This document shows positions 13,750 to 16,501 of a DNA stretch of 64,000 bases, in pieces; position 1 is the first letter of the stretch; each line of letters opens with the position of its first letter. The notes beneath the pieces are model-generated. The model saw only the letters and a program-made list of their open reading frames with translations. It searched no databases and was not told the origin of the DNA. The translations under genes were made by a program, and so were the position numbers. The stretch comes from Chlorobiota bacterium (GTDB lineage: Bacteria > Bacteroidota > Ignavibacteria > Kapaibacteriales > UBA961): NCBI GenBank assembly GCA_014191195.1, contig BJGZ01000008.1:1-64000 (forward strand). Direction: 5' to 3'.

Positions 13750-14751
13750 TTAATAGACGCTAGATTTTATAGATAAACCTGATATTTCAGGAAAGGAAAA
13801 CAAGATATTCATATTCTGAATTGCTTGCCCAGAAGCACCTTTTAACAAATTATCAAGAGTTGCTGTTATAATTACCTTGTCATTAATTATCTCAATATGA
13901 TAAAAGAATTTATTTGTATTAATAGCCCTTTTACAATCTGGAGAATCTTTGCTATGAACTATAAATGGCATGTCCTTATAAAAAGAACTATAAAGATGGA
14001 TAAGATCATCTTTTTGAATATGTTGTTTAACGGTAAAATATGAACAAGCTAATATTCCTCGGGTAAAACTGCCTCTCATTGGTATAAAATGAAATGTAGG
14101 AGTAAAATCTTGTTTAAACAGATGATTATGAATTTCTGTTTCATGTTGATGTTGAAAAGGTTTATATACTTGCGTATTATTATCGCGCCATGAAAAATGT
14201 GATGTATCACTTTTTAGTGTACCCGCACCAGTAGAACCTGTAATAGCAGTACAATGAATATCAAGAATATCTTTGGAAATATCACTATTTCTTAAAGGTA
14301 ATAAGGATAATTGAATACAGGTAGCAAAACAGCCAGGATTAGCAATATCTGTGCTTGGTGTATAGAGTGATTTATATAATTCTGGTAATCCATAGATAAA
14401 ACTTCTCTCTTCATTTTTATCAAGTGGAAATGCGCTATTTCTAAAATCACTACTTAAATCTATAATTCTTATATGATGTGGAATGGTATTATTCTCTAAC
14501 CACATTGCAGAGGAACCATGAGGTAAGCATAAAAAGATACAATCAACTATATCTAGATTTATATGCTCTGTAAATGCAAGATGAGTGTCTCCTCCTAGAT
14601 CTCGATGAATATCACTGATTAGTTTATTGGTATTGCGGGTACTAATTGCTTGAATATTATCAATATATGGATGATGTATCAAGAGTCTTAAAAGCTCGCC
14701 ACCAGTATAGCCAGAAGCCCCAATAATAGCAATATTAATTTTTGATATCAT
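13750..14751 (-). CDS. argC: N-acetyl-gamma-glutamyl-phosphate reductase
   Basis: The NADPH-dependent third step of arginine synthesis, reducing N-acylglutamyl phosphate to the semialdehyde. The Rossmann motif is IAIIGASGYTGGELLRLL at the N-terminus. The catalytic cysteine is in the conserved NPGCFATC, and the later HYIPMRG-like region reads FHFIPMRGSFTRGIL. At about 333 residues it has the usual length for the longer ArgC type. Two starts are possible: ATG at 14763 (MVQH) and ATG at 14751 (MISKINIAI). The second begins right before the first strand and is preferred. With either one the start lies inside the end of the acetyltransferase-argG gene, so translation is probably coupled. Confidence 0.95.
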   Translation of the reverse strand: MISKINIAIIGASGYTGGELLRLLIHHPYIDNIQAISTRNTNKLISDIHRDLGGDTHLAFTEHINLDIVDCIFLCLPHGSSAMWLENNTIPHHIRIIDLSSDFRNSAFPLDKNEERSFIYGLPELYKSLYTPSTDIANPGCFATCIQLSLLPLRNSDISKDILDIHCTAITGSTGAGTLKSDTSHFSWRDNNTQVYKPFQHQHETEIHNHLFKQDFTPTFHFIPMRGSFTRGILACSYFTVKQHIQKDDLIHLYSSFYKDMPFIVHSKDSPDCKRAINTNKFFYHIEIINDKVIITATLDNLLKGASGQAIQNMNILFSFPEISGLSIKSSVY

Positions 14752-16501
14752 GTGTTGAACCATTTACAGAATAATAAATCATTAATTGATTAGACGTGAT
14801 TTTTGCAAAGCCTTTCACATCTTCTCCACTCCAGGTAGAATTTAACTCTCCATATGTACCAAATACAGAACTCATTAAATCATGTTCAGATTCAATACCA
14901 ATAATATGAAATCTATATGGTGCGCAATGAACAGTAACTGTCCCTGTCACATTCTTTTGTGTAGATTCCATGAATAATTCAATACTTCGCATGGCAGGTT
15001 CAAGAAAATTACCTTCATGAAGCATCATGCCATATGTATTAGATAATTGTTCTTTTAACATTAATTGTTGTTTTGTTAATACATGTTTTTCTAAGGCATG
15101 ATGAGCTTTAATAATGATCATTGGGGCTCCTGCTTCAAAACCCACACGCCCTTTGATTCCGATAATTGTATCACCAACATGTATATCTCTTCCTATACCA
15201 AATGGCTGTACAATAGATGATAATTCCTGTATAGCTTGAACAGAATTGTCAAAATGCACCCCATTTATAGCAACAATTTCTCCTTTTACAAAAGAAATAC
15301 TTATTGTTTCGCTTTCAGTTTTAGTTACGGGCGTTGGAAAAGCTTCATCGGGTAAGTATTGAGAAGAAGTTAATGTTTCTTTACCACCAACTGTAGTTCC
15401 CCATAATCCTTTATTAATTGAATAATGGGCTTTTGTCCAATTTTTCTTAAAACCATGAAACGATAAAAATTCTATTTCTACTTCTCTTGATAAAGTATTG
15501 TCTCGTATTGGAGTTAGAACTGGAATATTTGGTAAAAGAATACTAAATGCAGAGTCAAATCGAACTTGATCATTTCCAGCTCCAGTAGATCCATGAGCCA
15601 CATAATCAGCTTTTATTTCTTTAGCATATTTGGCAATTGCAATTGCTTGAAATACTCTTTCTGCACTTACAGATAAAGGATATGTTGAATTTCTTAAAAT
15701 ATTACCAAATATTAAATATCTTAAACACTGATTGTAAAATGATTCTGTTACATCGATTGTGATATGCTTAGATACCCCAAGTGCAAGAGCATTATTTTCT
15801 ATCTCAGCAATTTCTGCTTGAGTAAAGCCACCAGTATTTACAAGTACAGAATGAACATCATATTGTTTTACTTGGGATAAGTATTTGGCACAATAGGAAG
15901 TGTCAAGTCCTCCACTAAAAGCGAGCACTACTTTTTTAGATGATTTTACAGGCTTTAATGGATCATATAGCATTCCTGTACATAAGCACATTTTACGGTT
16001 TGTTCTTGAGAGTACATCATAATTAGGACAGCTTGTGCATCCTTTCCAAAAAGCATCATCATTTGTTAATTCTGAAAAAGGTACGGGTGAATAACCAAGC
16101 TCAGTATTTATTTTCATAACTGCATGACTAGTTGTAATGCCAAAAACCTTAGCTTTTGGATACATTTCTCTTGATAATTCAAAGACTTTTTGTTTGATTT
16201 TTTTTGCTAATCCACTTTGCCTAAATTCAGGAACTACTATTAGGCCAGAATGCGCTACATATTGTTTATTACTCCATGTTTCTATATAACAAAAACCAGC
16301 AAAAATATCATTGTTCAATTCGTCTTTAGTAAAAGCAATAACAGCTTTTCCTTCTATCATTTTATGAAGTATATATTCGGGTTGTCTTTTTGCAATACCT
16401 GTTCCTCTTTGATCAGCTGCAATCTCTATCGTCTTACAGATAATATCAGCATAAGAAGCATGAATGTTTGAACTAACAACTATTGTGAATTCACGATTCA
16501 T
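14735..16501 (-). CDS. argG: Fusion of GNAT acetyltransferase (probable N-acylglutamate synthase) and argininosuccinate synthase
   Basis: One uninterrupted 588-residue frame joins two enzymes. Residues 1 to ~150 are a GNAT N-acyltransferase, with GLIVVPEFRQSGLAKKI carrying the acetyl-CoA-binding R-x-x-G-L-A turn (94-99). From about residue 188 it is argininosuccinate synthase, with the pyrophosphatase loop AFSGGLDTS (194-202), VAHGSTGAGNDQVRF, and a normal-length C-terminal region. Between them lies a linker with four cysteines (C155, C158, C172, C174). In Bacteroidota a free GNAT protein ending in a similar cysteine-rich tail is often encoded just before argG, and I infer that it supplies N-acetylglutamate. 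The fusion thus joins the first and next-to-last steps of arginine synthesis. It is the first gene of the operon. argD and argH are not in the window. Confidence 0.93.
   Translation of the reverse strand: MNREFTIVVSSNIHASYADIICKTIEIAADQRGTGIAKRQPEYILHKMIEGKAVIAFTKDELNNDIFAGFCYIETWSNKQYVAHSGLIVVPEFRQSGLAKKIKQKVFELSREMYPKAKVFGITTSHAVMKINTELGYSPVPFSELTNDDAFWKGCTSCPNYDVLSRTNRKMCLCTGMLYDPLKPVKSSKKVVLAFSGGLDTSYCAKYLSQVKQYDVHSVLVNTGGFTQAEIAEIENNALALGVSKHITIDVTESFYNQCLRYLIFGNILRNSTYPLSVSAERVFQAIAIAKYAKEIKADYVAHGSTGAGNDQVRFDSAFSILLPNIPVLTPIRDNTLSREVEIEFLSFHGFKKNWTKAHYSINKGLWGTTVGGKETLTSSQYLPDEAFPTPVTKTESETISISFVKGEIVAINGVHFDNSVQAIQELSSIVQPFGIGRDIHVGDTIIGIKGRVGFEAGAPMIIIKAHHALEKHVLTKQQLMLKEQLSNTYGMMLHEGNFLEPAMRSIELFMESTQKNVTGTVTVHCAPYRFHIIGIESEHDLMSSVFGTYGELNSTWSGEDVKGFAKITSNQLMIYYSVNGSTHDIKN
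15980..16039 (-). other. Four-cysteine linker between GNAT and ArgG domains
   Basis: Residues 155-174 of the fusion protein contain C-x2-C-x13-C-x-C. The spacing would allow a structural zinc or another metal. No metal assignment can be made from sequence alone. Confidence 0.5.

What the first reader, a model, noticed from the sequence alone, without database searches (positions are those of the whole stretch)
14735..16501. First and next-to-last arginine-synthesis enzymes fused through a four-cysteine linker
One open frame encodes a GNAT acyltransferase followed by a complete argininosuccinate synthase. The four cysteines between the domains (C155, C158, C172, C174) could form a metal site. 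Separate genes in this order are known in Bacteroidota. A fused form would force equal amounts of the enzyme that starts the pathway and the one near its end, and might allow shared regulation by arginine. Seen: the fused frame and the motifs. Inferred: that the GNAT part makes N-acetylglutamate (or N-succinylglutamate).
Basis: partly seen in the sequence, partly recalled or inferred. Interest (0 to 1): 0.7.

Follow-up and report, generated by a model that had tools for sequence, protein, structure and literature searches.

The report
Fused first and penultimate arginine-synthesis enzymes
A bacterium related to Candidatus Kapaibacterium makes the enzyme that starts arginine synthesis and the one that acts just before the end as a single protein; cockroach endosymbionts evolved the same fusion independently, which suggests a real advantage in tying the two steps together.

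Summary
One uninterrupted minus-strand frame (14735-16501, 588 aa) carries an N-terminal GNAT acyltransferase and a complete argininosuccinate synthase, and heads an argC-argF'-argB-argE gene run. It is not an assembly error: the fusion is open in a second genome of the genus (96% identical) and in four genomes of two sister genera (about 70%). The GNAT part belongs to the Bacteroidota/Calditrichota N-acylglutamate synthase family (Cabys_1732, BT3761), so the pathway assignment is well supported; ArgF' and its relatives favour succinylated over acetylated intermediates.

The 'four-cysteine linker' reading is wrong. All four cysteines are invariant in 94 of 94 homologues, nearly all stand-alone proteins, so they belong to the GNAT domain. 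The true linker is about 8-10 variable residues.

The fusion is rare: 6 of about 486 genomes of the phylum surveyed, all in one family. It arose separately in Blattabacterium (41 of 41 genomes; a shared origin is rejected). Five of seven genomes of the window's genus lack argG, argC and argH.

I found no published description in the open literature held. Known counterparts are the argH(A) fusion of marine gammaproteobacteria and an NAGS-argC fusion. New variant of a known kind, probably bifunctional; arginine cross-regulation and metal binding are untested.

The parts
14735..16501 (-). Fused gene: GNAT N-acylglutamate synthase + argininosuccinate synthase, 588 aa, stop codon included in the coordinates
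15959..16501 (-). GNAT acyltransferase domain, residues 1-181 (Cabys_1732/BT3761 type), including the C-terminal Cys motif
   Evidence: 94 homologues aligned; AlphaFold pLDDT 94 for residues 1-188; Foldseek hits 2r8v, 5yo2, 5yge
15980..16039 (-). Cys motif of the GNAT domain: C155, C158, C172, C174 (C-x2-C-x13-C-x-C)
   Evidence: all four Cys in 94/94 homologues, nearly all unfused; helix 149-157 and strand 175-179 in the models
15935..15958 (-). True inter-domain linker, about residues 182-189
   Evidence: variable in length and sequence among fused homologues; pLDDT < 50 at 184-186
14738..15934 (-). Argininosuccinate synthase domain, residues 190-588
   Evidence: PF00764 + PF20979; invariant SGGLDT and HGSTGAGNDQxRFD motifs; Foldseek 7k5z TMt 0.89
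13750..14763 (-). argC, N-acyl-gamma-glutamyl-phosphate reductase; overlaps the 3' end of the fused gene by 29 nt if the first ATG is used
   Evidence: TIGR01850 above cut-off
12789..13748 (-). argF', N-acylornithine carbamoyltransferase of the B. fragilis succinylornithine type; residue 90 is Gly
   Evidence: PRK04523 above cut-off; best PDB match 1js1, E 5e-122
11988..12788 (-). argB, N-acylglutamate kinase
   Evidence: TIGR00761 above cut-off
10900..12012 (-). M20 deacylase (argE / BT3549-like step)
   Evidence: PF01546 + PF07687; TIGR01910 below cut-off

Best explanation
The 588-aa protein is a bifunctional enzyme of a linear arginine pathway. Its GNAT domain acylates L-glutamate, most likely with succinyl-CoA to N-succinylglutamate (acetyl-CoA is the alternative). 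Its ArgG domain adenylates citrulline and joins it to aspartate. The two ancestral genes stood next to each other in this order at the head of the arginine operon, and loss of the intervening stop and start joined them through a short flexible linker. The most likely consequence is a fixed 1:1 supply and one shared translation start for the entry and penultimate enzymes. Substrate channelling between them is unlikely, because several pathway steps lie between. Shown: the fused frame, its conservation and purifying selection, domain families, operon context, recurrence. Inferred: both catalytic activities, the acyl group, the benefit.
For: Single frame, 588 aa. Same fusion in G004 at 96% and in G007, G008, G010, G012 at 68-70%; whole-gene dN/dS 0.053. 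GNAT homologues are adjacent to argG across Bacteroidota; described family members are Cabys_1732 (PMC5317091) and BT3761 (PMC7311316). AlphaFold GNAT model pLDDT 94, with N-acetylglutamate synthase 2r8v as second-best PDB fold match and Rv2747 and ArgA among the top 13. ArgG motifs invariant, fold TMt 0.89 to 7k5z. No ArgJ in the genome and no second copy of this GNAT, so the fused GNAT is the only candidate found for step 1. argD and argH present elsewhere. ArgF' is closest to B. fragilis succinylornithine transcarbamylase; position 90 is Gly here and Val in G007, G008, G010, and PMC7311316 lists S, P, A, V as succinyl-preferring.
Against: No activity of the fused protein is measured. Gly at ArgF' position 90 is not among the tested residues. 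pTM 0.65 for the fused model means the domain arrangement is not resolved. Classical ArgA was not searched with its own model. The ArgG match scores 254 bits, just under the TIGR00032 cut-off of 268, as expected for the divergent Bacteroidota branch but short of a clean call.
Confidence: 0.83

Rival explanations
1. The fusion is an assembly or sequencing artefact that removed a stop codon between two normal neighbouring genes.
For: Adjacent in-frame pairs separated by a single stop are common in the phylum, so one error could fuse them.
Against: The open junction is found independently in six genomes of three genera at 68-96% identity and in ten Blattabacterium loci read.
Confidence: 0.01
2. 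The gene is fused but the protein is not bifunctional: it is cleaved, or ArgG is also made from an internal start, so two polypeptides act separately.
For: M177 (ATG) lies just before the linker in the Kapaibacteriaceae-type fusions read; low model confidence at 184-186 would suit a protease-accessible linker.
Against: M177 lies inside the ordered end of the GNAT domain and is 94% conserved in homologues that are mostly unfused, so it is not a retained argG start. Blattabacterium fusions have no ATG there and some have no start-like codon at all in the junction.
Confidence: 0.09
3. The GNAT domain makes N-acetylglutamate, not N-succinylglutamate, and the pathway runs on acetylated intermediates.
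For: The characterised member Cabys_1732 is reported as an N-acetylglutamate synthase (PMC5317091); ArgF' also passes the N-acetylornithine carbamoyltransferase model PRK04523.
Against: ArgF' is far closer to B. fragilis succinylornithine transcarbamylase (E 5e-122) than to N-acetylornithine transcarbamylase structures (E 5e-55), and residue 90 is Gly or Val in this family. PMC7311316 argues that most Bacteroidetes use succinyl.
Confidence: 0.25
4. The fusion is a regulatory device: arginine (or citrulline) bound by one domain changes the activity of the other, with the Cys motif as a metal or redox sensor.
For: Independent origin in two lineages; Rv2747, a top fold match, was solved with arginine bound; Xu et al. 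2006 (PMC1382215) proposed arginine sensitivity for the analogous argH(A) fusion.
Against: No arginine-binding amino-acid-kinase domain; the linker is short and poorly conserved with no sign of a conserved interface; the Cys motif is independent of the fusion.
Confidence: 0.12

Closest known systems
Stand-alone Bacteroidota/Calditrichota N-acylglutamate synthase (BT3761; Cabys_1732), gene next to argG
   Same: Same GNAT family with the invariant C-x2-C-x13-C-x-C motif (shown on the homologues fetched), same gene order, same pathway
   Different: Here it is joined in one polypeptide to ArgG; the free C-terminal tail of the stand-alone forms is replaced by a short linker
argH(A) / H-NAGS fusion of marine gammaproteobacteria (Moritella, Idiomarina; PMC1382215, PMC4490483)
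   Same: First-step GNAT fused to a late arginine enzyme; the acyltransferase part complements an E. coli argA mutant
   Different: Partner is ArgH (last step) and the GNAT is C-terminal; its GNAT is of the ArgA/Rv2747 group, which the window's domain matches only at fold level
NAGS-argC fusion of Haliangium ochraceum and NAGS/NAGK of Xanthomonas (PMC4490483, PMC1865377)
   Same: First arginine enzyme fused to another enzyme of the pathway
   Different: Partners are early-step enzymes, and the NAGS there is of the vertebrate-like type with an amino-acid-kinase domain
Blattabacterium GNAT-ArgG open frame (e.g. NZ_CP059221, L019)
   Same: Same two domains, same order, one match spanning both in 41 of 41 genomes sampled
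   Different: Independent origin; linker longer and variable; not described as a fusion in the papers I could read

Membership tests
Bacteroidota-type N-acylglutamate synthase (Cabys_1732/BT3761) | GNAT fold with acyl-CoA binding motif | tested here: met
   VVPEFRQSGLAKKIK; model matches GNATs, 559 PDB hits at E <= 0.001
Bacteroidota-type N-acylglutamate synthase (Cabys_1732/BT3761) | Family signature residues, including four C-terminal cysteines | tested here: met
   29 invariant columns, among them all four Cys; the Cabys_1732 and BT3761 sequences themselves were not in hand
Bacteroidota-type N-acylglutamate synthase (Cabys_1732/BT3761) | Gene linked to argG in an arginine operon | tested here: met
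   Fused to argG and followed by argC-argF'-argB-argE
Bacteroidota-type N-acylglutamate synthase (Cabys_1732/BT3761) | Glutamate N-acyltransferase activity | not testable with these tools
   needs an enzyme assay or complementation
Argininosuccinate synthase (ArgG) | PP-loop ATP motif, substrate motifs and fold | tested here: met
   SGGLDT and HGSTGAGNDQxRFD invariant; PF00764 and PF20979; TMt 0.89 to 7k5z
Argininosuccinate synthase (ArgG) | Score over the NCBIfam equivalog cut-off TIGR00032 | tested here: inconclusive
   254 bits against 268.2
argH(A) / H-NAGS fusion | Partner is argininosuccinate lyase (ArgH) | tested here: not met
   Partner is ArgG; argH lies on another contig, C14
Fe-S or Zn binding protein | Metal bound by the four Cys | not testable with these tools

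The most novel reading that the evidence does not exclude
The independently evolved fusion creates an allosteric circuit in which the ArgG domain, sensing citrulline, arginine or ATP, sets the activity of the entry acyltransferase. This would be a form of pathway control that needs no amino-acid-kinase regulatory domain, with the conserved Cys site as a bound-metal or redox element.
Probability: 0.12. Interest if true: 0.65.

Novelty: new variant of a known kind. Interest (0 to 1): 0.42.

Why it matters
It adds a new partner and layout to the short list of natural fusions of the arginine entry enzyme (with a kinase-like domain, ArgC, ArgH), and it arose at least twice in unrelated lineages, one of them an obligate endosymbiont. 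That makes the question 'what does tying the entry of a pathway to its exit buy?' directly testable with separated and fused versions from related lineages. It may also fill a gap in Blattabacterium metabolic reconstructions: a 2022 survey lists missing arginine-pathway genes as 'common gaps' (PMC9603385), and the missing first step could be the GNAT half of what is annotated as argG; that last point is my inference. Finally it points to an invariant, unexplained four-cysteine site in a whole enzyme family.

Tried and rejected
Fusion-specific metal linker: rejected, the four Cys are in all 94 homologues. Assembly artefact: rejected. More fusions elsewhere in Bacteroidota: pairs that the survey flagged as one long frame were fetched and every one has a stop or frame change between the genes. 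Frame bias of adjacent pairs: 27 of 74 in frame, no excess worth pursuing. Leader attenuator: terminator-like sites in the region are no more frequent than in shuffles, including the hairpin at 16567-16584; it is weakened in G004, and leader folding z-scores are -1.2 and -1.4. No Rfam family anywhere in the window. A mixed alignment of fused, GNAT-only and ArgG-only rows (A1) misaligned and was discarded. An idea that the Bacteroidota ArgG had lost a citrulline-contact tyrosine was dropped because other solved synthases vary at that place.

Full report
WHAT IS THERE. The finding's coordinates are right but the gene is on the minus strand: 14735-16501, ATG start, 588 aa. Residues 190-575 are a complete argininosuccinate synthase (PF00764 and PF20979). 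Residues 1-181 are a GNAT domain that single-sequence Pfam scoring barely detects, but that 42 of 46 homologues and an AlphaFold model of mean pLDDT 94 make clear. The second-best match of that model in the PDB is N-acetylglutamate synthase of Neisseria gonorrhoeae (2r8v); Rv2747 with acetyl-CoA and arginine (5yo2) and ArgA with acetyl-CoA and glutamate (5yge) are among the first 13. The ArgG half matches Legionella argininosuccinate synthase 7k5z with TMt 0.89, and its ATP and substrate motifs are invariant.

CONTEXT. The gene heads a run (argA-argG) / argC / argF' / argB / argE on the minus strand. argH and a TIGR00707-level argD are elsewhere in the genome. In G007 the same run continues into argH and contains an additional GNAT gene between argC and argF'. 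There is no ArgJ and no second copy of this GNAT, so the fused domain is the only candidate found for the entry step. The nearest named record is a Candidatus Kapaibacterium MAG (L002).

IS IT REAL. The junction is open in a second genome of the genus (96% identity) and in four genomes of two sister genera (68-70%), and the protein is under strong purifying selection (dN/dS 0.053; in 30 junction codons 6 synonymous and 1 non-synonymous change). A frameshift or lost stop by sequencing error is excluded for practical purposes.

THE CYSTEINES. All four are present in 94 of 94 homologues, nearly all of which are stand-alone GNATs. In both models they lie in the ordered end of the GNAT domain, between helix 149-157 and strand 175-179. 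They are therefore a family signature and predate the fusion. The true linker is about residues 182-189; it varies in sequence and length among fused proteins and has pLDDT under 50 at 184-186. Whether the cysteines bind metal is open; their invariance makes a structural or metal role likely.

HOW COMMON. In about 486 distinct genomes of the phylum (the match list is truncated below about 369 bits), only six carry the fused frame, all in the window's family. Further pairs that the search reported as long frames were fetched and all are separate genes. A pattern scan of one genome for each of 84,980 species returned two fused loci among its best 80: the Kapaibacterium MAG and Blattabacterium cuenoti. 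All 41 genomes sampled from the genus of that Blattabacterium have one match spanning both domains, and the ten junctions read are open.

EVOLUTION. On a tree of GNAT plus ArgG, Blattabacterium and the window's group lie far apart; forcing them together is rejected (p-AU 1.6e-57). So the fusion arose at least twice. Within the window's family the two fused groups are split by unfused relatives with moderate support (95/91), but one clade is not rejected (p-AU 0.116); one or two origins remain possible there. The three genomes of genus g4, nominally of the same family, carry separate genes of clearly different ancestry (p-AU 3e-50), which suggests horizontal replacement.

PATCHY PATHWAY. Five of seven genomes of the window's genus have neither argG/GNAT, nor argC above cut-off, nor argH above cut-off; two of the five are at least 99% complete. 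The pathway is thus present or absent as a whole. Loss in these five is the simpler reading, because the sister genera have it, but gain was not excluded.

FUNCTION. Two members of the GNAT family have outside support: Cabys_1732 as an N-acetylglutamate synthase (PMC5317091, authors' unpublished results) and BT3761 from mutant fitness as the probable N-succinylglutamate synthase (PMC7311316). I did not have those sequences; membership rests on family-wide adjacency to argG and on the papers' descriptions. ArgF' in the window is much nearer to the B. fragilis succinylornithine enzyme than to the N-acetylornithine enzymes. Its specificity residue 90 is Gly, and Val in the sister genera; PMC7311316 lists S, P, A and V as succinyl-preferring. 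Succinyl is therefore favoured, about 3:1.

WHAT IS KNOWN. Fusions of the entry enzyme with ArgH (argH(A), PMC1382215), with a kinase-like domain and with ArgC (PMC4490483) are published. For argH(A), Xu et al. proposed co-regulation and possible arginine sensitivity as the benefit. I found no paper describing a fusion with ArgG in the held open literature; subscription journals and databases such as InterPro were not available, so automatic domain annotation of the Blattabacterium proteins may already show it.

VERDICT. A real, conserved, independently recurring fusion; a new variant of a known kind. Bifunctionality is probable; regulation by arginine and metal binding are hypotheses.

Noticed in passing
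L019, L182-L191 (Blattabacterium): All 41 Blattabacterium genomes sampled carry a GNAT-ArgG fused frame, so the arginine entry step that metabolic reconstructions may list as missing could be hidden in the gene annotated argG.
   Followed up: partly
G001, G002, G003, G005, G006 versus G000, G004: Within the window's genus, argG/GNAT, argC and argH are present together in two genomes and absent together in five, pointing to wholesale loss (or gain) of arginine synthesis.
   Followed up: partly
L103, L111, L113 (genus g4): The g4 genomes of the same family have unfused argA and argG from a different part of the phylum tree, suggesting horizontal replacement.
   Followed up: partly
alignment A3, after residue 181: Stand-alone GNATs of this family have C-terminal tails of very different length, many ending in a hydrophobic or aromatic stretch; role unknown, possibly docking.
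   Followed up: no
L199:9373-9888 (-): In G007 an additional 171-aa GNAT gene sits inside the arginine operon between argC and argF'.
   Followed up: no
L059:1153-1689 (-): A variant of the GNAT family with KDSGLAQR in place of RGTGIAKR, located away from argG in the same locus, keeps all four cysteines.
   Followed up: no
window 16567-16584 (-): Terminator-like hairpin in the leader of the fused gene; such sites are not above chance here and the stem is weaker in G004.
   Followed up: yes
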